Shown here in pieces: positions 1-12,410 of a stretch of DNA of 42,165 bases (positions are counted from its first letter, which is position 1; every line of letters begins with the position of its first letter). The stretch comes from a virus: positions 1 to 42,165 of the IMG/VR virus record IMGVR_UViG_3300023174_000307, one strand, 5' to 3'. The notes below the pieces were generated by a model that was not told the origin of the DNA, did no database searches, and saw only the letters and a list, made by a program, of their open reading frames with translations. A program made the position numbers and the translations under genes.

Positions 1-54
1 CGAGGTGACGCTCGCGAATTCCTTCGGCGAGCTGGTCTAGAGTAAACTTTGACA
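1..54 (-). CDS. 5' end of probable major capsid protein gene (gp23-like), cut by window edge
   Basis: Only the first 18 codons are present, starting at ATG 54 and beginning MSKFTLDQLAEGIRERHL. The start is preceded by a strong ribosome site, AAGGAG, seven bases before ATG. In T4-like phages the gene directly downstream of the scaffold gene 22 is the major capsid gene 23, and this reading frame lies 47 bases downstream of the gp22-like gene, so the identity rests on position and not on sequence similarity. Residues 9 to 11 (LAE) would fit the (L/I)xE consensus for gp21-family cleavage, although T4 gp23 is cut much further in, near residue 65. The gap before it holds a candidate promoter motif. 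Confidence 0.55.
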
Positions 55-81
55 TTTTCTATCTCCTTGTATGGTTAATTG

Positions 82-101: not shown

Positions 102-1067
102 TCACTCAGCAATGCCAGCAAGCACTGCCCAGCGGTTGACCTCACCAGCCGATTCATCGAGCCTCTGGCTCGTGCGGACTGGTCTTGAAGAACCACCTGC
201 ACTGCGTGCACCCTCTGCAAGCCTTCCGCCGGTGGTGACCAGCGATTCCGAGAGGCTTGTATAGAGGAGCTTTGCTTCCCTTATGGTCTTGGCCGAGTCG
301 ATTGCCTCGACGACTGACTTGAGCTGCTTCTCCGAGAGAGAGCGGTTGTTCAAAAGCTTATTGACATAGAGAAGCTTTGCGTTGAACAACTTCTGCTCGT
401 CGAGCTGGCGGCGAAGGGTCTCTGCCACCTGCACTGCCTCATTGAGGCGTGCATCTGAGGCACGATTATAGCGGGCCTCCTTCATATGTGCAGCCTCAAC
501 CTCGGACATGCCCTTAACGGCAGCCCCTGGCTTGACTGTCTTCTTCTTTCCTGCCTTGTCCTTCTCGGAGAGGGCATTGAGCTTCACGTCCTTAGCCTTG
601 GAGCCTCCGCCGAAGTGATGAGCCATATCAGACTCTGCATTCAGCTTCTTAGTTGCGCCGCGGCGCTTGCGGGCTTCCATTAGAGCGCGTGCGATGGTGG
701 ACTCGTCGATCTCGTATACGGTCTCATTTTCCTCGAGGTCTTCACCTTCGTATTCCATCTCGCCGTGCATCTCGCCCTCTTCCTGGGCTTCCTCTTCCTC
801 AGCTGGCTCTTCCTCTTCAGAGCCCTCGGCGCCCATCTCATCAGAAAGGGCCTGGAGCTGTGCTATGATATCAGAGAGCTGTGCAGCTGGATCCTCAGTA
901 GGAGCCTCTTCTTCGGCGGGCATCTCTTCGGCGGCTGGGGCCTCTTCTTCGGCCTCGTACATTTCGTCCATTTCCATTTCCATTTCCTCTTGCTCTTCAT
1001 CGGCCTCATAGAGGTTGAAATCAGAGGACTCTCTCAGGAGATTCCTGAGAAGTGTTCTTGTAGACAT
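102..1067 (-). CDS. Possible short scaffold form from an internal in-frame start
   Basis: ATG at 1067 is in the same frame as the long scaffold (its codon 221) and would give a 321-residue protein beginning MSTRTLLRNLLRESSDF. It is preceded by AAGGAG at 1082 to 1077, nine bases upstream. The site AAGGAGATAGAA is identical to the one before the capsid gene at 54. The predicted short product contains the whole Glu-rich region and the gp22-like C-terminus, and its length is close to that of T4 gp22. Both the long and the short form begin MSTR. Nested scaffold genes are known in other phages (lambda C and Nu3). That both forms are made here is inference from the ribosome site alone. Confidence 0.45.
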   Translation of the reverse strand: MSTRTLLRNLLRESSDFNLYEADEEQEEMEMEMDEMYEAEEEAPAAEEMPAEEEAPTEDPAAQLSDIIAQLQALSDEMGAEGSEEEEPAEEEEAQEEGEMHGEMEYEGEDLEENETVYEIDESTIARALMEARKRRGATKKLNAESDMAHHFGGGSKAKDVKLNALSEKDKAGKKKTVKPGAAVKGMSEVEAAHMKEARYNRASDARLNEAVQVAETLRRQLDEQKLFNAKLLYVNKLLNNRSLSEKQLKSVVEAIDSAKTIREAKLLYTSLSESLVTTGGRLAEGARSAGGSSRPVRTSQRLDESAGEVNRWAVLAGIAE

Positions 1068-1727
1068 ATGTTCTATCTCCTTTAGTAGATTGGAAAACTC
1101 AATTCTTGCGTTCTCTGAGAGATCGCTGTTCGACTCTTGCAGCTCCTGCTTGAGTCCAATGGACTTCCTCAGGATGGCGTTAAACTCCTCAACGATTTGG
1201 ATTGCAGCCCCTTTTGAGGCACTGCTCTCATTGAGGGCGTTGAGGGCCCTCCCAAGCATCTTGAGCTCCAGCCTGAGGGCTTTAGAACGGTCTAGGACAG
1301 TTGGACTGCCATCGACTATCCTGAGGAGCGTCTCCAGAGACTCACTAGTCAAATCAATTGCGCTCTCTTCTTTTAGATTGAGAGTGACGGACTTGACGCC
1401 AGCTGGAACATGGAGGTCAACGCCTGCAGTCTGCTGTGCAGGGAAACTTTGACCCACTGAGGGCGGCATAAGCATTGGAGGAACAGCAGGCGCCTCAGCA
1501 TGCTCATCATGCTCATCATGCTCTTCCTCATCTTCCATAGACAACAAAAGGTCGTCGATATCATCACCGCCAGAATTTTCTTCTGCCGATTCAAACAGCG
1601 ACTTTTCAACCATTGCTCTTATTCTAGGAGCAAATGCTTCTACGAGCTTCTTCTTAGCATTCTCCTCAGCCATGCGGATGAGGTCGTTTGCTTCATCAAT
1701 TGCTTCTTTATAGATCCTAGTTGACAT
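102..1727 (-). CDS. gp22: Prohead core scaffold protein (gp22-like), long form
   Basis: This 541-residue protein is highly charged and largely helical. The N-terminal 50 residues form an amphipathic helix (MSTRIYKEAIDEANDLI...). Residues 68 to 77 hold a short DEH repeat, residues about 239 to 322 are an extreme Glu-rich stretch, and residues about 440 to 510 match the C-terminal part of gp22 scaffolds (LLYVNKLLNN, then SEKQLKSVVEAID). The role known for the family is to form the internal core on which the prohead shell assembles and then be degraded by the gp21 protease. Its place between protease and capsid genes agrees. T4 gp22 is only about 270 residues, so this version is nearly twice as long. 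A second, strongly primed start lies at codon 221. The gene is visibly richer in G and C than the tail genes. Confidence 0.85.
   Translation of the reverse strand: MSTRIYKEAIDEANDLIRMAEENAKKKLVEAFAPRIRAMVEKSLFESAEENSGGDDIDDLLLSMEDEEEHDEHDEHAEAPAVPPMLMPPSVGQSFPAQQTAGVDLHVPAGVKSVTLNLKEESAIDLTSESLETLLRIVDGSPTVLDRSKALRLELKMLGRALNALNESSASKGAAIQIVEEFNAILRKSIGLKQELQESNSDLSENARIEFSNLLKEIEHMSTRTLLRNLLRESSDFNLYEADEEQEEMEMEMDEMYEAEEEAPAAEEMPAEEEAPTEDPAAQLSDIIAQLQALSDEMGAEGSEEEEPAEEEEAQEEGEMHGEMEYEGEDLEENETVYEIDESTIARALMEARKRRGATKKLNAESDMAHHFGGGSKAKDVKLNALSEKDKAGKKKTVKPGAAVKGMSEVEAAHMKEARYNRASDARLNEAVQVAETLRRQLDEQKLFNAKLLYVNKLLNNRSLSEKQLKSVVEAIDSAKTIREAKLLYTSLSESLVTTGGRLAEGARSAGGSSRPVRTSQRLDESAGEVNRWAVLAGIAE
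1498..1522. repeat. Nine-base tandem repeat in the scaffold gene
   Basis: The unit atgctcatc is repeated almost three times. On the coding strand it encodes the tripeptide Asp-Glu-His three times in a row near residues 68 to 77 of the scaffold, just before a Pro-rich segment. It is probably a replication-slippage product in a disordered linker. The cluster of His beside acidic residues is unusual but no function is implied. Confidence 0.7.
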
Positions 1728-2942: not shown

Positions 2943-3167
2943 TCAGCTTCTGGCCTTCTTGATCTTGGCATCAATTACGCGGCCAAGATGTGCATGAGCT
3001 TCCTTGAGCTTAAGCAATTTAGCAAAATTGACTGACTTCTCTAGAGTGTCAGCAAGCTCATCAGCCTCGACCTCTTCAGCGTCGCCAACAAGCTCCTCGC
3101 TCTCTTGGAGCTTTGCCATCTCTTCCATAACAATACGACGAAGCAGCTCTGGTGTAAGATTCTTCAT
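2943..3167 (-). CDS. Small acidic helical protein, possible prohead core component
   Basis: The 74-residue product is almost entirely helical and charged. It opens with an amphipathic helix, MKNLTPELLRRIVMEEMAKL, ending in LQE at residues 20 to 22. It continues through an acidic centre and closes with a basic tail (DAKIKKARS). The gene follows a 40-base gap and has AGAGGAAAAGAAA before ATG. The opening helix is similar in style to that of the 147-residue neighbour (LKSIVKECLVEIL). In T4 the corresponding region encodes small core proteins gp67 and gp68, so a core role is plausible, but I cannot show homology. The (L/I)xE end of the helix fits a gp21-family cut site. Confidence 0.7.
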   Translation of the reverse strand: MKNLTPELLRRIVMEEMAKLQESEELVGDAEEVEADELADTLEKSVNFAKLLKLKEAHAHLGRVIDAKIKKARS

Positions 3168-3207: not shown

Positions 3208-3651
3208 TCAATCACTTGAACTTTCTTTCCCTGAAAAAGCTAGAAATTCCCAGTTCCTTGAAGAGCTGAACATTTCCATTGGATCTACGCCAGTGTCAAC
3301 CACAGGATTTCCTGGCCTCGAAGACTCATTCATTCCCTGCTGGGGGAGAGTATTCCTAGCAGTGTCTGCAAATATGGATGCCATAACATCATTGCCACCA
3401 GCTAATTCCTTGGCAACTGAGGCTAGAGGGTCTCTTGGCTGCGCCGACTGAGGGCGAGCTGGTGTTCCATGATGAATAAAGTCTAGACCTGGCCTATTCC
3501 TGCTGAGCTTTGACCTCTCATCCTGCTTTGGAGCAGCCCTAACAGAATTTTCGTTTACTTTAGCCTTTGGAGCGGTCTTTGTACCCACTCCTTCCATTAG
3601 GATCTCTACTAGGCATTCCTTGACAATGCTCTTTAGCTCTGACCTATTCAC
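3208..3651 (-). CDS. Head-locus protein with possible capsid-targeting N-terminus
   Basis: This 147-residue protein starts at GTG 3651, which overlaps the stop of the protease gene as GTGA. The ribosome site GGAGG lies seven bases upstream, which decides the start. The first 20 residues (MNRSELKSIVKECLVEILME) form an amphipathic helix ending in LME, followed by a Gly and a long polar, probably disordered segment rich in Pro, Arg, Asn and Ser. T4 internal head proteins carry a short N-terminal targeting helix that the prohead protease cuts after (L/I)xE, and this protein has the same plan. I do not recognise a family. A role as an encapsidated internal protein is inference. Confidence 0.75.
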   Translation of the reverse strand: MNRSELKSIVKECLVEILMEGVGTKTAPKAKVNENSVRAAPKQDERSKLSRNRPGLDFIHHGTPARPQSAQPRDPLASVAKELAGGNDVMASIFADTARNTLPQQGMNESSRPGNPVVDTGVDPMEMFSSSRNWEFLAFSGKESSSD

Positions 3652-4265
3652 TTTTTATCCTCCCAACCGATAATTTCATTCATAATTCTATCGATCCTGT
3701 CGGACTTTGTGAACGTGTTTTCCAGGTCTTTTGATGAAACTTTCTTGCCTTCAGCCATCATAAAAGCGCCTGGCGTGGATGGCTCCGCAACGAAGTCCCA
3801 GCAGATGAGCTGAAAATCGTCTTGGACGACCTGCCTGTCTCCATCCTTCTTGGTAGAGCCGACGCCGCGGCTTGATATTCCAAGAGTAACTCCGCTCTCC
3901 ACTAGGCTCTGCAGTATCTTTCCGCAGGGAGTGTCGAGGAGCTCAACTCTTCCGTATACTACATCTCCATCCATCCAGGCTTCTCTAATGATGTGAGAGA
4001 CCTTCTTGAGCTCTACAACAGACTCGTTAGGATGGTCGCATTCGCCGAGGGCCCTGTTTTCCTTAATAAACTTCTGATAGTTCCTAAGCTCTCTCTCGAG
4101 TATTGGCTTTGGATAGACGCGTCCATTCTGATTCAGGGTGTTAGCCTTCTGCAAAATGCCTTTCATCACTATCTTTCCGCCGTTCTTCTCCTTTTCGATC
4201 TTTATTGTATCAGAATCGTAAGAAAAAGGAGTCCACTCGGTAAGGAGCTGCTTTGAATCACTCAT
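3648..4265 (-). CDS. gp21: Prohead maturation protease (gp21-like)
   Basis: This is a serine protease of the T4 gp21 family, which degrades the scaffold and trims capsid proteins inside the prohead. The 205-residue length matches T4 gp21 (212). The family signature NTLNQNGRVYP lies at residues 42 to 52, the probable catalytic His at 78 within ECDHP, and the catalytic Ser in the GISSRG segment at 129 to 134, followed by DFVAEPSTPGA. The start ATG at 4265 overlaps the end of the upstream gene by eight bases and follows AGGAGAAGG. Residues 7 to 10 (LLTE) fit the enzyme's own cleavage consensus, consistent with the self-processing known for gp21. Confidence 0.93.
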   Translation of the reverse strand: MSDSKQLLTEWTPFSYDSDTIKIEKEKNGGKIVMKGILQKANTLNQNGRVYPKPILERELRNYQKFIKENRALGECDHPNESVVELKKVSHIIREAWMDGDVVYGRVELLDTPCGKILQSLVESGVTLGISSRGVGSTKKDGDRQVVQDDFQLICWDFVAEPSTPGAFMMAEGKKVSSKDLENTFTKSDRIDRIMNEIIGWEDKK

Positions 4266-5086: not shown

Positions 5087-7036
5087 CTAGGATTCCCCTT
5101 CGCTCTCTTCGTCTAACAGACGCTCTTCACTGAGAAGCGTACTCATGGAATTAGATCTATTTATTTTGCTCCCGAGCTTCTTTAGGTTGGAAGCAAAATC
5201 TGTTGTAATTCTTGGCTCAGAAGTTACGGTTTTGATCCCAAAAATTTCTTCAACTAGAGAAACATTTGGATCAATCTCTGAGTCTGACTCGATTCTCATA
5301 GTCTGCTTGAAGTCGTATGGATCATTAGAGGTATCCTGGCTCCTCTTGCCTATGGTCATAGAGAGGTCATCTTGAATGCCAGCTTTAGAGTTTGAGAATC
5401 TTCCTCTATTCCTAGCTGACTTTCTCCTTCCACCGAAGACATTCTGGGCTTCGCTCGATATCCTAACAGGAAGGTCAAAGTCTATCTCTCCGATTATATC
5501 TCCTTCGCTTGAAGAGTCAGATTCAGGAGCAGCGGGAGCTTCAGCAGGGGCTTCAGGAGCAGCAGGAGTTTCGGCTGGCATCTCAGGAGCAGCAGGAGTC
5601 TCTGTAGCGCCACCTTCAGCAGGTGCAGCAGCCTCAGCTGCTGCAGCCTCAACTTCTCCGTCTTCAATCTTGTCCTTCTTCCTTCCTTCCTTGACGCGTT
5701 CTATCTCCTCATTCGTGAGACCAAGAATATTCTTCCTGATCCAGGATCGATCGACAGCGCCTTCTGGAGCAGCTCCAGCAATTTCAAACTTCGTCTTTAT
5801 GAGCTCGAGCTTTTGAAGCTGCGCAACAGAGCTTGGATTGTTGAGGCTGAGACGAAAGTTCATAATCTCATCATCAGAGACTCCGTGGCTGTAGAGGTGA
5901 ATCATAGCCAGCTTGTTGAGCTCTGAGAGGACAACCTTCTGAATTCTAGTTATTGTCCTCGAGAATCTCACGTCTTCCTGAGAAAGAGTAGCTTTGGATC
6001 CAATTGCTTCGTCGTATCCCAGGTAGGCTTTTGGTATCTTGAGAGCAGCAAATAGCTTCTTTTGGATATACGTTACGTCCTCTACGGCAGCAGTGTTCTG
6101 ACCGCCTGCGAGAGTGTCAATCTTTGTTCCAGACTCACTTCCACGAACAGGAATATAGTAGTCATCATCAACAGAAAGTGGATTATATCGAAGATCTGTC
6201 TTTCCTGTTACGCGCTCACTTACTCTATTTCTCTTCAGGCTTGTCTGGGCCTGCTGCATATAGTTTTCAATATCTTCTGGGGGGATATTTCCAACGTCTA
6301 TGTAGAAAATGCGCCTCTCTGGGGCTCTCACTATTCTATAGACCAGCATTGCATCCTCGATGAGGATCAGCTGCCTCCAAATTCTTCTCGCAGATTCTAT
6401 GACAGAGGCACCGTATGGCAAGAAAGCATCATTTCCAAGAAGTCTGAAGTGGGTGACCTGCCAATTTTCAAGCGTCTTATTACCCTTGGTGATCCACCTG
6501 AATCTCACTGCCATTGGATCATCTGGATCGAATCCCTCTTCGCGCTCCATTTCAGCTATTGGTATTGGAAGGACATTGACAATTCCATACTTTGGAGAGA
6601 TGTCGTTGAATGTGAAAAAATCTCCGTACTTGCAGAGATTTCTGATCCACATAGGAAGGTTGAAATCAACATTTATAACATCATAGAAGAGATTATCTAG
6701 GAGCTCCTTTATTACCCTATTCTCAGAGTAGATGTGGAGAACACGGCCAGATTCGTCCTGAGAAGCAGTCTCTTCTGCATAGATATCAAGAGCTGATGCA
6801 ATCTCTGGAGTCGCCTCCATCTCAGAGAAGTCGCTGTACCTCGACATGCGATCAAACTGTCCGTATGCAGAGACTGTGCTTGAATAGACGTCAGATACGT
6901 TCCTACGGAACAGAGAGTATGCTGAAGAGGCTGTAGGACCAGGATCAGGACCCTTTACCTTCCTGCGGATTACAGGGCCGCTTCGAAAGAGCCGAGTCAA
7001 GCGGCTAAATAGATTTTCTTCTTTCTTTGGTGGCAT
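5087..7036 (-). CDS. gp20: Portal vertex protein (gp20-like) with Ala/Pro-rich linker
   Basis: The portal forms the dodecameric ring through which DNA enters the head. The first 450 residues read as a typical T4-type portal: YSLFRRNVSDVYSS near residue 40, an early segment ATPEIASALDIYAEE, then WRQLILIEDAMLVYRIVRAP, a strongly conserved helix of the family, and IGSKATLSQEDVRFSRTI in the crown region. Residues about 459 to 507 are a low-complexity Ala/Pro/Glu stretch, followed by about 140 polar residues. T4 gp20 is 524 residues, so this tail is an extension. The start follows terminase by 16 bases. The end (LLSEERLLDEES) holds possible protease sites. Confidence 0.93.
   Translation of the reverse strand: MPPKKEENLFSRLTRLFRSGPVIRRKVKGPDPGPTASSAYSLFRRNVSDVYSSTVSAYGQFDRMSRYSDFSEMEATPEIASALDIYAEETASQDESGRVLHIYSENRVIKELLDNLFYDVINVDFNLPMWIRNLCKYGDFFTFNDISPKYGIVNVLPIPIAEMEREEGFDPDDPMAVRFRWITKGNKTLENWQVTHFRLLGNDAFLPYGASVIESARRIWRQLILIEDAMLVYRIVRAPERRIFYIDVGNIPPEDIENYMQQAQTSLKRNRVSERVTGKTDLRYNPLSVDDDYYIPVRGSESGTKIDTLAGGQNTAAVEDVTYIQKKLFAALKIPKAYLGYDEAIGSKATLSQEDVRFSRTITRIQKVVLSELNKLAMIHLYSHGVSDDEIMNFRLSLNNPSSVAQLQKLELIKTKFEIAGAAPEGAVDRSWIRKNILGLTNEEIERVKEGRKKDKIEDGEVEAAAAEAAAPAEGGATETPAAPEMPAETPAAPEAPAEAPAAPESDSSSEGDIIGEIDFDLPVRISSEAQNVFGGRRKSARNRGRFSNSKAGIQDDLSMTIGKRSQDTSNDPYDFKQTMRIESDSEIDPNVSLVEEIFGIKTVTSEPRITTDFASNLKKLGSKINRSNSMSTLLSEERLLDEESEGES
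5515..5660. repeat. Imperfect GCAGGAG-type repeats encoding the portal Ala/Pro linker
   Basis: The plus strand contains repeated blocks such as tcaggagcagcaggag, seen at least three times between 5520 and 5600 with small changes, followed by a run of gcagc units. They encode APAAPE-like and PAETPAAPE peptides in the portal. The pattern suggests expansion by slippage or recombination. It should be read as a disordered linker and not as a domain. Confidence 0.7.
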
Positions 7037-8986: not shown

Positions 8987-9271
8987 CTAACCTCCATTTT
9001 CTAAATATCTTTCTTGTAAGCGCTGAGACCTTTCATTTCTCACTGATTGAATATCATCATCGTTTGGCCTCCATCCATCCTTCCACTTTAGCATATTCCT
9101 CTCTACTATCTCATCCTCACAAAGCCTGCAAGTACCAACTCTATCATGAGACTCTACATCTAGCGAGCTTGCCATAGCTTCACTACAGATAGGGCACCAG
9201 AGTGGAGCTCGAGGCTTTTCTGCATCCACTATGACGCTAATCTTTGTCCTTCGATTAAATGTGCTTGACAT
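8987..9271 (-). CDS. Small zinc-ribbon protein, function unknown
   Basis: This 94-residue protein holds two CxxC pairs, Cys26/Cys29 (WCPIC) and Cys48/Cys51 (CRLC), spaced as in a zinc ribbon, with a helical, charged C-terminal third. The spacing suggests one bound zinc. The ATG at 9271 lies inside the end of the Mre11-Rad50 gene (17-base overlap), with AAGGA five bases upstream supporting it. It sits between recombination genes and terminase, so it could bind nucleic acid or a partner in DNA metabolism or packaging, but the sequence gives no proof. I do not recognise a named family. Confidence 0.8.
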   Translation of the reverse strand: MSSTFNRRTKISVIVDAEKPRAPLWCPICSEAMASSLDVESHDRVGTCRLCEDEIVERNMLKWKDGWRPNDDDIQSVRNERSQRLQERYLENGG

Positions 9272-12200
9272 AAGAATCCTTGCTTACTTGATTGATTTCA
9301 ATCATTTCGTCAACAGCTTCCTTCACAGCATCAACATGAGATATCACTAGGATAGACTTGAAATACTTCTTCAAAGACGCTAGCATCTTATTGCAGCTTT
9401 CGATTCCTGCATCATCAAGAGCGCCAAAGCCCTCATCAATGATTAGGACGTCTGTCTTTGGAAGGGAAGACATGTTTGTTAGAGCCACCCGGATAGCAAG
9501 AGAAGAGATCATCTTTTCCATTCCGCTACCGAGCTCAATTGGACGATAAGAGTCACCATAGTCGAGAAAGATTTCAAGATCATTTGACCCCTCTGGAGAA
9601 GAGAGGATGATGTCAAAATTCACAATTCCCTGCAGGATGCTATGAATCTCTTGGTTAATTCTTGGAAGCTCTTTGGTGAGGATGTTGAATGGAATTCCAT
9701 TCTTGGAATATGCATTGATTAGCTTGTCAAAAACCTTCCAGCGCTTCTTGGCGCTCTCATATTTCTCCTTATCAGAAATTAACCTCTCAATCTTCTCCTT
9801 TAGGCGTCCCAGCTGGAGATCGATGTTTGTCATCTGAGTCTCCTTCTGGCGGATGCTGGATTGGGTTTCAGAAATCTCCGTCTTCAGTTTCTCAAGCTCT
9901 TCAGTGGATTCATCAGAAACCACCTTCAAACGCATAGAAGCCAGGTTAGACTCAAGAGAAGATATGGTAGAGCTGTCCGAGCTTATTCCATCATTAAGAA
10001 ACTTCACTTTGTCGTTCAATAGCTTGATCTTTTGAATATTGTTATTGTATTCTGTGACAAAGCTCTCGTATTTCTTGATTTTAGACTCGATATCCTTTTC
10101 CTTCAGAGACTTCAGCTGCTCACTGGCCTCTGTGATAGAAGATTCAAGCCTATCAATTGTGGCCTGCTGCTCTGCAATCAGCTGCTTATCACGATGAGAG
10201 TCCTTAATGAACATACAGGTCGGATAAGAATCGCCGCAAGGGACAGTCTCAAGCTTCTTTACAGACTTTGTCTGATTGTTGAGGACCATAATCTCCTTGT
10301 CGAGCTTTGCCGAGAGAGTGGAATACTTTCCAGCAAGCTCTTGGATCTCCATAAGTCCATCACGATACTCTTGAATTGGAAAAATCTTCTGAAGATTCTC
10401 GATCTTTCTCTGCCTCTCTTCAAATTGCAAGATTTCTTCATTGATTGTATCGATCTCGTCCAGCTTTCTCTTATAAGAATCCTTAGCCTTCTGGAGCTTA
10501 TCTTCGACAGACGTGACGTCCGACTTTGTTACCTTGTCTCCATTCTTGTGAGTTGCGAGGACAACATTCAAGGAGGTAATCTTCTCTCGGAGCAGACCAA
10601 GATCGCTCTCAAGCCTCAACCTATTCTTTGTGTTATCTTGCTGTTCCTCGCGTGCTGTCTTTAGAGAGTCATCATAATTGACAGCAGAGTCCTTCACCTT
10701 CGACTTGAATACGATGGACTCCTCTTTCAGCCACCGATGAATCTCAGAGAAGATTCCAATGTCAAGGAATGAGTTGAGATAGTTCTTACGGTTGGTTGCT
10801 CCCTGCTTGATGAACTGATTCATCTCTCCCTGAGAGGCAAAAGTGGTAAGCAGGAACTCCTCAGAGCGTCCGATGATGCTTCGAAGAATCTTCTCTGACT
10901 CATTCCTCTGCTCACCGCTCAGGTCGGCGCAGACATTTCCATTCTCATCAAGCTCAAAGAGACTTAGGGTTGTTGGAGCAGAAATCTGGCCCTTCTTGTT
11001 GGAGTTCTTTACAGTTGCCCTCTCTGCACGGTACTTCTTGGATCCAACTGTGAAATCTACCTTCGCAGTGCAGTAGTCCTTTGCAGTGTTGATTACATTC
11101 AAGTTGGAGATGGAGCCGCGGTCGGTATCGTTGAAGAGGGCATACATCAAAGTGCCGACAATCGAAGACTTTCCAATTCGATTGGGTCCAAAGATTCCGA
11201 CGATGCCAGAAACAGTGTGGAAGTTGATTTCATTTCCACTTCCATAAGAGAAGGTATTGTCCCACGACATCCTGTCGAGGGTCCATTTTGTATTCCTTGG
11301 ATGCTCCTGGTCAGTGATAGAGGATAGAGCACTCTTCACGAGGTTCTCAGCAAGGACCCAGTCCTCTTGAGTCATGTCCTTATCATCAAGATAGAACTGC
11401 TTCAAGAGATCAAGCTGGGTAGAAATCTCTCGGAAGTTCTCACGCTGGAGCAGGGCAGTCACCTGCGCAGCTTGCTGAGCTTGAGGGTCATCAATAAGCT
11501 TCCAGATTACCTCAGAAGACTTCATCCGCTCTTGCAGAAGTGCAGAGAGCTGCTTGAACTCCTCCTGGAAGACCTGCTTCTTTGATACAATTCTGAAGCG
11601 GCTGCCCTTCTTGTGCTTCCTGCAGGCCTCAAAAGTAGACAAGACTGTTCCCATCCAATCGATGGTGACATAGGGGAATGGAGAGTCGATGATCTCTCGA
11701 CGAACCTTCCACTTGTCCTTGCTAGAGATCTCCCATACGAGATATCCCTTATCTACAGACTCACCGTAGTTCTGCTGGATGGTTGAGCCTGGGTAGGCAA
11801 ACTTCTGCTTCAAGTCAAGGAATTGAAACTTGTGGATGTCTCCAAACATTCCATAGTCGAACTGAGAGAAGTCCTTGATAGTCAGGCCAGACTCATGGTT
11901 GATCTCCCAGTCTGAATCTGCCAGAGCTCCACGGACTGCCCCATGGTAGATGCTCACGTTGACTAGGTCTTCAGTTGGCTCAATGTTCTTCCAAGAGTCC
12001 TCATCGAAACAAGAAAAATTGCACCATGCAATCCCAGCTTGTTCGTCTCGATAGACGCAGCTGTCCTTCAAGAAGATGATATTCTTGTTATTGATAGCTT
12101 CAATCACTGGAGTGATAGCGTCGAGGCGCGAGCGATTCAGAATGAGGCCATCGTGATTCCCGAGTACAACAATGGTAGGACAAATCCTCCCAAGTCCTTC

Positions 12201-12410
12201 GAACCACCAAACAAGGTTTCTGATCAACTCTGGGGTTATTCCCTGAAGCTTAGAATGGACAATGTCGCCTGCAATCAGGATACGGTCTGGTTTTTCCTCT
12301 TGCATTCTTTGAAAGAATTCTTCAAAGACGGAACGGTACTCATCATGGCGCTTCAGAGACCGCCAGTGAATGTCAGCAAGATGAACTACCTTTACACTCT
12401 TCTTCATCAT
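9255..12410 (-). CDS. Single-chain Mre11-Rad50 (gp47-gp46 fusion) recombination nuclease/ATPase
   Basis: One uninterrupted frame of 1051 codons joins two proteins that are separate in T4. Residues 1 to about 370 are a calcineurin-like Mre11/gp47 nuclease: DIH at 13 to 15, GDIVH at 48 to 52, GNHD at 84 to 87, H156, and GDIH at 190 to 193. From about 375 a Rad50/gp46 ATPase begins: Walker A GPNRIGKS at 408 to 415, two long coiled-coil arms, a Cys-x6-Cys apex near 723 to 731 in place of the usual CxxC zinc hook, the signature LGSGMEKM near 962, and Walker B VLIIDEGFGALDD near 990. The complex resects DNA ends for recombination-dependent replication. The primase gene ends eight bases upstream. 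Confidence 0.95.
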   Translation of the reverse strand: MMKKSVKVVHLADIHWRSLKRHDEYRSVFEEFFQRMQEEKPDRILIAGDIVHSKLQGITPELIRNLVWWFEGLGRICPTIVVLGNHDGLILNRSRLDAITPVIEAINNKNIIFLKDSCVYRDEQAGIAWCNFSCFDEDSWKNIEPTEDLVNVSIYHGAVRGALADSDWEINHESGLTIKDFSQFDYGMFGDIHKFQFLDLKQKFAYPGSTIQQNYGESVDKGYLVWEISSKDKWKVRREIIDSPFPYVTIDWMGTVLSTFEACRKHKKGSRFRIVSKKQVFQEEFKQLSALLQERMKSSEVIWKLIDDPQAQQAAQVTALLQRENFREISTQLDLLKQFYLDDKDMTQEDWVLAENLVKSALSSITDQEHPRNTKWTLDRMSWDNTFSYGSGNEINFHTVSGIVGIFGPNRIGKSSIVGTLMYALFNDTDRGSISNLNVINTAKDYCTAKVDFTVGSKKYRAERATVKNSNKKGQISAPTTLSLFELDENGNVCADLSGEQRNESEKILRSIIGRSEEFLLTTFASQGEMNQFIKQGATNRKNYLNSFLDIGIFSEIHRWLKEESIVFKSKVKDSAVNYDDSLKTAREEQQDNTKNRLRLESDLGLLREKITSLNVVLATHKNGDKVTKSDVTSVEDKLQKAKDSYKRKLDEIDTINEEILQFEERQRKIENLQKIFPIQEYRDGLMEIQELAGKYSTLSAKLDKEIMVLNNQTKSVKKLETVPCGDSYPTCMFIKDSHRDKQLIAEQQATIDRLESSITEASEQLKSLKEKDIESKIKKYESFVTEYNNNIQKIKLLNDKVKFLNDGISSDSSTISSLESNLASMRLKVVSDESTEELEKLKTEISETQSSIRQKETQMTNIDLQLGRLKEKIERLISDKEKYESAKKRWKVFDKLINAYSKNGIPFNILTKELPRINQEIHSILQGIVNFDIILSSPEGSNDLEIFLDYGDSYRPIELGSGMEKMISSLAIRVALTNMSSLPKTDVLIIDEGFGALDDAGIESCNKMLASLKKYFKSILVISHVDAVKEAVDEMIEINQVSKDSYVKHI

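What the first reader, a model, noticed from the sequence alone, without database searches (positions are those of the whole stretch)
102..1727. Strong internal start suggests a nested scaffold gene
ATG 1067 is in frame at codon 221 of the long scaffold and is preceded by AAGGAGATAGAA, identical to the ribosome site of the capsid gene at 54. The product would begin MSTR, as does the long form, and would have about the length of T4 gp22. This resembles the nested lambda C/Nu3 design and might set the ratio of a long N-terminal-domain form to a plain scaffold form.
Basis: partly seen in the sequence, partly recalled or inferred. Interest (0 to 1): 0.6.

Follow-up and report, generated by a model that had tools for sequence, protein, structure and literature searches.

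The report
Nested scaffold gene in uncultured phages
In a large group of uncultured T4-like phages, the gene for the presumed head scaffold carries a second, stronger start signal in its middle that evolution has kept letter for letter, so one gene very probably makes both a long and a short scaffold protein.

Summary
On the minus strand, ATG 1067-1065 is codon 221 of the 541-codon ORF 102-1727, preceded by AAGGAGATAGAA, the same 12-mer as before the capsid gene. In this window alone it could be chance: AAGGAG-N9-ATG is expected 0.65 times.

Relatives settle it. In 97 distinct scaffold proteins, alignment alone puts Met at this column in 77 of 94 ingroup members. All 77 have a strong Shine-Dalgarno there, against 84 of 1138 other in-frame ATGs. 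The Glu codon is GAG in 77/77 (about 50% expected), and identical K/E/Q codons show 0 of 275 synonymous differences (28% elsewhere). The 17 others have such a pair nearby, several in another reading phase. The internal signal beats the long form's own in 77/77.

Controls are negative: other head genes, T4 and cyanophage gp22, and a sister clade of 73 scaffolds with one short product. The trait splits the tree once (support 100/99).

Best reading: one ORF makes an abundant short scaffold and a scarcer long form with an N-terminal helix and helical bundle. It works like lambda C/Nu3 but is not a member, since the protease is a separate gene. Expression is undemonstrated; the long form's role is inferred.

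The parts
102..1727 (-). Long form: presumed prohead core/scaffold protein, 541 aa
   Evidence: Open frame; lies between a gp21-like protease (PHROG 207, 1e-52) and the capsid gene; acidic and helical; 72% identical in L002. No Pfam or PHROG family names it, so 'scaffold' rests on synteny, composition and conserved L-x-E sites.
102..1067 (-). Short nested form, 321 aa (MSTRTLLRNLL...), same frame and same stop
   Evidence: Conserved internal start; short-form length in relatives 260-429 aa, median 338, like the single scaffold of the sister clade (mostly 291-429 aa).
1065..1067 (-). Internal start codon ATG (codon 221)
   Evidence: Met at this aligned column in 77 of 94 ingroup proteins; 38/38 of the 60%-identity lineages with the aligned Met.
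1071..1082 (-). Internal Shine-Dalgarno AAGGAGATAGAA (AAGGAG at 1077-1082)
   Evidence: Same 12-mer as at 57-68; dG -8.7 against -2.7 for the long form's own start and -8.5 for the capsid gene; GGAG in all lineages, 0/275 synonymous changes.
1068..1727 (-). Long-form-only region, 220 aa
   Evidence: Predicted helix 2-50, disordered acidic linker, helical bundle 128-219; length 136-263 aa in relatives.
1578..1727 (-). N-terminal helix, residues 1-50 (IYKEAIDEANDLIRMAEENAKKKLVEAF...)
   Evidence: 51% mean identity between lineages, as high as the C domain; kept in the sister clade and in the Mel-JY01 and immuto phages.
1071..1346 (-). Helical bundle, residues 128-219, next to the internal start
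   Evidence: AlphaFold block pLDDT 71-95; 18% identity between lineages for residues 101-215; no counterpart in the aligned Mel-JY01 and immuto proteins, whose clade has mostly 291-429 aa scaffolds.
105..467 (-). Conserved C-terminal domain and tail, residues 421-541 (...LFNAKLLYVNKL...RWAVLAGIAE)
   Evidence: 54% and 46% identity between lineages; long helix 180-240 of the short form; present in both forms.
213..221 (-). L-A-E (503-505), candidate cleavage site of the T4-type protease
   Evidence: L/I-x-E at this column in 85% of lineages; T4 gp21 cuts after L/I-x-E (PMC9026906). Cleavage here is inferred.
1..55 (-). Start of the gp23-like major capsid gene (runs off the window)
   Evidence: The L002 homologue downstream of its scaffold matches PHROG 138 major head protein, 4e-33; SD at 57-68.
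3648..4265 (-). Separate gp21-like prohead protease
   Evidence: PHROG 207 head maturation protease, E 1e-52.
5087..7036 (-). Portal protein (gp20-like)
   Evidence: PHROG 213, E 7e-71.

Best explanation
ORF 102-1727 encodes the main prohead core (scaffold) protein of an uncultured T4-like phage and is read from two in-frame starts. Ribosomes starting at 1727, behind a weak Shine-Dalgarno, make a 541-aa long form with an extra N-terminal helix and a helical bundle. Ribosomes binding the strong internal AAGGAG and starting at ATG 1067 make a 321-aa short form with only the acidic segment and the C-terminal domain. The two share their C-terminal domain and would co-assemble, and the two initiation signals fix a ratio in which the short form should dominate. 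Shown by sequence: the site, its selection at the RNA level, its restriction to one clade, and its superior strength. Inferred: that both proteins are made. More speculative: that the scarce long form acts as an initiator or anchor of the core (for example by docking on the portal or recruiting the protease) while the short form is bulk filler.
For: Conservation: Met at the aligned column in 77/94 ingroup proteins; SD dG <= -6.3 in 77/77 against 84/1138 other in-frame ATGs (Fisher 8e-77); GGAG invariant at -12 to -10 and G at -13 in 37 of 38 lineages at 60% identity. Codon level: Glu -4 is GAG in 77/77 with about 50% expected (product over 38 lineages 1e-13); Lys -5 is AAG in 58/58 with 70% expected; 0/275 synonymous differences at identical K/E/Q codons of the site against 28% elsewhere. 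Reading-phase shifts: several of the other 17 ingroup members carry the SD in another codon phase, e.g. TCA GGA GAC AAC ATG (L084), CAT GGA GAT AAG AAA ATG (L114), AAT GGA GCT AAA ATG (L118). Initiation context: local folding -4.5 against -9.4 kcal/mol for the ORF, AT 0.63 against 0.52, both Wilcoxon statistic 0 over 38 lineages; Ser second residue in 27/38, as in the long form and capsid starts. Strength: internal SD stronger than own start in 77/77, -8.55 against -4.61. Specificity: none in capsid (103), protease (39), core275 (29), T4-type gp22 (6) or cyanophage gp22 (4), nor in 73 sister-clade scaffolds; one change on the tree, 100/99.
Against: No protein or ribosome data; the phage and nearly all close relatives are uncultured. 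'Scaffold' rests on gene position and composition, since no Pfam or PHROG family matches and hhalign finds no relation to T4 gp22. In 17 of 94 ingroup members the site was not placed by the alignment and was assigned by hand; a few of these are weak (L045, L055, L111, L118). SD energies assume a standard anti-SD because the host is unknown. Related sequences are not independent, so P values are only indicative. Nothing tests the long form's role.
Confidence: 0.88

Rival explanations
1. The internal AAGGAG is an SD-like ribosome pause site that slows elongation after the N-terminal bundle so that it can fold; no second protein is made.
For: It lies directly at the end of the predicted bundle (residues 128-219).
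Against: A pause needs no ATG at a fixed distance, yet Met is kept 5-9 nt behind GGAG across lineages, with low local structure and a start-like second residue. The same clade's capsid, protease and core275 genes show no comparable conserved site.
Confidence: 0.05
2. The KExxxMS stretch is conserved as protein (a helix cap, cleavage or binding motif) and the ribosome-site look is a by-product.
For: K216, E217 and M221 are the conserved residues there in the closer relatives.
Against: Codon choice is fixed (GAG 77/77, AAG 58/58; 0/275 synonymous changes), and in several relatives GGAG is carried by Gly-Asp, Gly-Ala or Gly-Val codons in another phase.
Confidence: 0.02
3. The short form is essentially the only scaffold; the weak upstream start yields little protein and the N-terminal region is a vestigial leader or regulatory element.
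For: Long-form SD is weak here (-2.7) and weaker than the internal one in 77/77 relatives; the bundle region is poorly conserved (18%).
Against: The N-terminal helix is one of the most conserved parts of the protein (51%) and is kept in the sister clade and in isolates, so the long form is under protein-level selection.
Confidence: 0.05
4. Chance: a strong SD-ATG arising in a Glu- and Lys-rich coding sequence.
For: In the window alone AAGGAG-N9-ATG is expected 0.65 times; acidic sister-clade scaffolds do show scattered SD-ATG pairs.
Against: Those scattered pairs are not conserved in position; this one is, in 38 lineages.
Confidence: 0.005

Closest known systems
Phage lambda C/Nu3 (long protease-scaffold gpC and nested scaffold gpNu3)
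   Same: Two proteins from one frame with a common stop; the short, nested product is the scaffold and the long one carries an extra N-terminal domain (overlap of C and Nu3: Shaw and Murialdo 1980, cited in PMC8508860; C, Nu3 and the portal form an initiator, PMC3224144).
   Different: Here the N-terminal part is a helix plus helical bundle without protease similarity; the protease is its own gene. No sequence relation was tested or found.
T4 gp22 prohead core scaffold
   Same: Gene position between gp21-like protease and gp23-like capsid gene; acidic, helical; conserved L/I-x-E sites fitting a gp21-type protease.
   Different: No detectable sequence similarity (hhalign E 0.3); T4-type and cyanophage gp22 have no internal SD-ATG.
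Mel-JY01 / immuto / uncultured sister-clade scaffold
   Same: Homologous N-terminal helix and C-terminal domain.
   Different: Single product of mostly 291-429 aa, without the extra bundle and without a conserved internal start.
Two-polypeptide phage endolysins encoded in single genes (PMC9430671)
   Same: In-frame internal start with its own RBS gives a full-length and an N-truncated product.
   Different: A different protein class; the functional logic there is enzyme multimerisation.
Herpesvirus UL26/UL26.5 protease-scaffold (from memory)
   Same: In-frame nested scaffold sharing the C-terminus with a longer protein.
   Different: Nested transcripts rather than an internal bacterial RBS, and the long form holds the protease.

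Membership tests
Lambda C/Nu3-type nested protease-scaffold | Short scaffold encoded in frame inside a longer gene with its own start signal | tested here: met
   (at sequence level).
Lambda C/Nu3-type nested protease-scaffold | Long form carries the head protease domain at its N-terminus | tested here: not met
   No protease match in 1-220; the protease is a separate gene at 3648-4265.
Lambda C/Nu3-type nested protease-scaffold | Both proteins demonstrated | not testable with these tools
   No expression data for an uncultured phage.
T4 gp22 family | Sequence similarity to gp22 | tested here: not met
   hhalign probability 0.2%, E about 0.3; tblastn of T4 gp22 found 1988 phage records; Mel-JY01 and immuto, which carry this scaffold, were not among the 40 rows listed.
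T4 gp22 family | Position between gp21-type protease and gp23-type capsid gene | tested here: met
   with four small genes between protease and scaffold.
T4 gp22 family | Substrate of an L/I-x-E protease | tested here: inconclusive
   L/I-x-E conserved at residue 505 in 85% of lineages; other conserved L-x-E columns lie in helices; cleavage itself untested.
Scaffold family of this window and the Mel-JY01 clade | N-terminal LxEAIAxA helix and C-terminal LFNAKLLY...LAG domain | tested here: met
Scaffold family, nested subclade | Conserved internal SD-ATG after an added bundle | tested here: met

The most novel reading that the evidence does not exclude
A whole clade of uncultured T4-like phages evolved a two-tier scaffold. 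A new helical domain was inserted between the ancestral N-terminal helix and the rest of the scaffold, together with a new ribosome site right behind it, so most scaffold copies lack the ancestral helix. The scarce long copies then act as a built-in, stoichiometrically limited initiator or portal anchor (or length gauge), separating 'start the head' from 'fill the head' within one gene.
Probability: 0.35. Interest if true: 0.75.

Novelty: new variant of a known kind. Interest (0 to 1): 0.6.

Why it matters
How T4-like phages limit the number of assembly starts and set head size is an old question. A built-in pair of long and short scaffolds, whose ratio is written in two ribosome sites, would make it directly testable by tuning one site. 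The feature spans dozens of lineages of uncultured phages, yet standard annotation would report one protein, and no Pfam or PHROG family covers it. The one-step difference from a sister clade with a single scaffold gives a natural experiment on how nested genes arise.

Tried and rejected
Separate genes in place of the nested form: none among 97 full-length ORFs.

T4 gp22 homology: none by hhalign.

Fold search in the viral structure library: one low-TM match for the short form (A0A6J5MH79, an uncharacterised protein of an uncultured phage, E 6e-5, TM 0.25) and nothing significant for the long-form region; both models are largely low confidence, so not informative.

N-terminal L-x-E as a propeptide site: not above baseline (47 of 97, about 48%, against 42%), dropped.

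A T4-like late promoter (TATAAATA) in front of the internal start: near-matches occur at chance level (46 against 44 expected) and none lies just upstream of 1067.

Host assignment: the genome scan gave one weak relative in a Methylococcaceae MAG; not enough.

Per-site synonymous recoding test in single genomes: weak individually (most p 0.1-0.4) because K-E already favours an SD; only the pooled and paired tests are strong.

Full report
CHECK. All features are on the minus strand. ORF 102-1727 encodes 541 aa. ATG 1067-1065 is codon 221, in frame, and is preceded by AAGGAGATAGAA at 1071-1082. The same 12-mer stands at 57-68 before the capsid gene, whose ATG is 55-53. The SD-to-anti-SD energy is -8.7 kcal/mol at the internal site, -2.7 at the long form's own start and -8.5 at the capsid start. 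In the window alone this is suggestive only: AAGGAG-N9-ATG is expected 0.65 times by chance.

SETTING. Upstream of the ORF lie a portal gene (5087-7036), a 275-aa gene, a gp21-type protease (3648-4265, PHROG 207) and four small genes. Downstream is a gp23-type capsid gene; its homologue in L002 matches PHROG 138. The ORF itself matches no Pfam or PHROG family. 'Scaffold' therefore rests on position, acidity, predicted helices and a conserved L/I-x-E site near the C-terminus (85% of lineages), the cleavage motif of T4 gp21 (PMC9026906).

RELATIVES. One close relative (L002, 72% identical) keeps AAGGAGATAAGTGAAATG at the same place. A capsid-based scan and a scaffold-profile scan of IMG/VR gave 160 rows. 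After removing truncated and duplicate ORFs, 97 distinct full-length scaffolds remained, including three outgroups.

CONSERVATION OF THE SITE. Aligned as proteins, without looking at the DNA, 77 of the 94 ingroup members have Met in the column of M221. All 77 have SD energy at or below -6.3, against 84 of 1138 other in-frame ATGs in the same ORFs. These 77 fall into 38 lineages at 60% identity. In those lineages GAG at -12 to -10 is invariant and -13 is G in 37/38, whereas residues -3 to -1 and +2 to +6 vary widely.

SELECTION ON RNA, NOT PROTEIN. The Glu at -4 is GAG in 77/77 (ORF average 50%) and the Lys at -5 is AAG in 58/58 (70%). Among 142 pairs of related ORFs, identical K/E/Q residues at the site show 0 synonymous differences in 275 comparisons, against 28% elsewhere. 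Among the 17 ingroup members where the alignment did not place a Met in the column, each has a GGAG/GAGG (or AGGA)-ATG pair in the same region, several in another codon phase: TCA GGA GAC AAC ATG (L084), CAT GGA GAT AAG AAA ATG (L114), AAT GGA GCT AAA ATG (L118). Those 17 were assigned by hand and a few are weak. Around the site the RNA is little structured (-4.5 against -9.4 kcal/mol) and AT-rich (0.63 against 0.52), with a Wilcoxon statistic of 0 over 38 lineages for both. These are the marks of an initiation region.

CONTROLS. The same search for conserved Met columns with an SD found none in capsid (103), protease (39) or core275 (29) families of the same loci, nor in T4-type (6) or cyanophage (4) gp22. 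The portal set had only 3 members and is uninformative. In the sister clade (Microcystis phage Mel-JY01, Flavobacterium phages 'immuto' and their IMG/VR kin; 73 distinct scaffolds, mostly 291-429 aa) the N-terminal helix is kept and no conserved internal SD-ATG exists. In the aligned Mel-JY01 and immuto proteins, which also keep the C-terminal domain, the extra bundle region has no counterpart. A tree of the C domain splits nested and single scaffolds by one branch (100/99), one change of state. The direction (gain of bundle plus start, or loss) is not proven, because the root is not known.

MECHANISM. Shown: the second start is under strong RNA-level selection and is the stronger signal in 77/77 relatives (-8.55 against -4.61). 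Inferred: both a long and a short form are made, short in excess. The long-only region is a helix (2-50), an acidic linker and a bundle (128-219) ending at the internal site. The helix is as conserved as the C domain (51% against 54%), the bundle region is not (18%), so the helix has a partner that constrains it while the bundle may be a spacer or clade-specific part. The most economical role is that of a limited anchor or initiator on portal or protease, with the short form as bulk core. In lambda the portal, C and Nu3 form an initiator complex (PMC3224144). This role is speculation (about 0.35-0.45).

PLACE AMONG KNOWN THINGS. It works like lambda C/Nu3 and like in-frame two-product endolysin genes (PMC9430671), but is not a C/Nu3 member: the N-terminal part is no protease. 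It is not a gp22 member by sequence. Full-text searches found no report of a nested scaffold in T4-like phages. The library lacks many subscription papers, so this is weak evidence of absence. The clade may correspond to or overlap the uncultivated Far-T4 phages (PMC4360716); this was not tested.

Noticed in passing
L004:7083-8324 (Flavobacterium phage immuto): The scaffold homologue is annotated 'DNA polymerase phi-like protein' and contains a long internal duplication (two near-identical GFEQWLDSVSAQMDKF... units).
   Followed up: no
L086:5515-6087 (T4 gene 21): In T4 an internal translation start is annotated in the protease gene 21, the neighbour of gp22; whether the protease of this clade has one was only checked by a conserved-Met scan (none found).
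   Followed up: partly
L253 (NHDW01000006.1, MAG Methylococcaceae TMED69): The only relative of the scaffold C domain found among bacterial genome contigs; may be a phage contig binned with its host.
   Followed up: no
L003:5585-5812: Microcystis phage Mel-JY01 has a gene annotated as ribosomal protein S21 (RpsU) between its protease and scaffold genes; the window has an unrelated-looking 74-aa ORF (2943-3167) in a similar place.
   Followed up: no
window 9255-12410: A 1051-aa ORF on the minus strand matches SbcC-like recombination subunit (PHROG 77, 3e-52), close to the head gene cluster.
   Followed up: no
window 9833: Another internal ATG with a strong SD (-8.8), within the SbcC-like ORF, but in strongly folded RNA (-16.8); probably chance.
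   Followed up: partly
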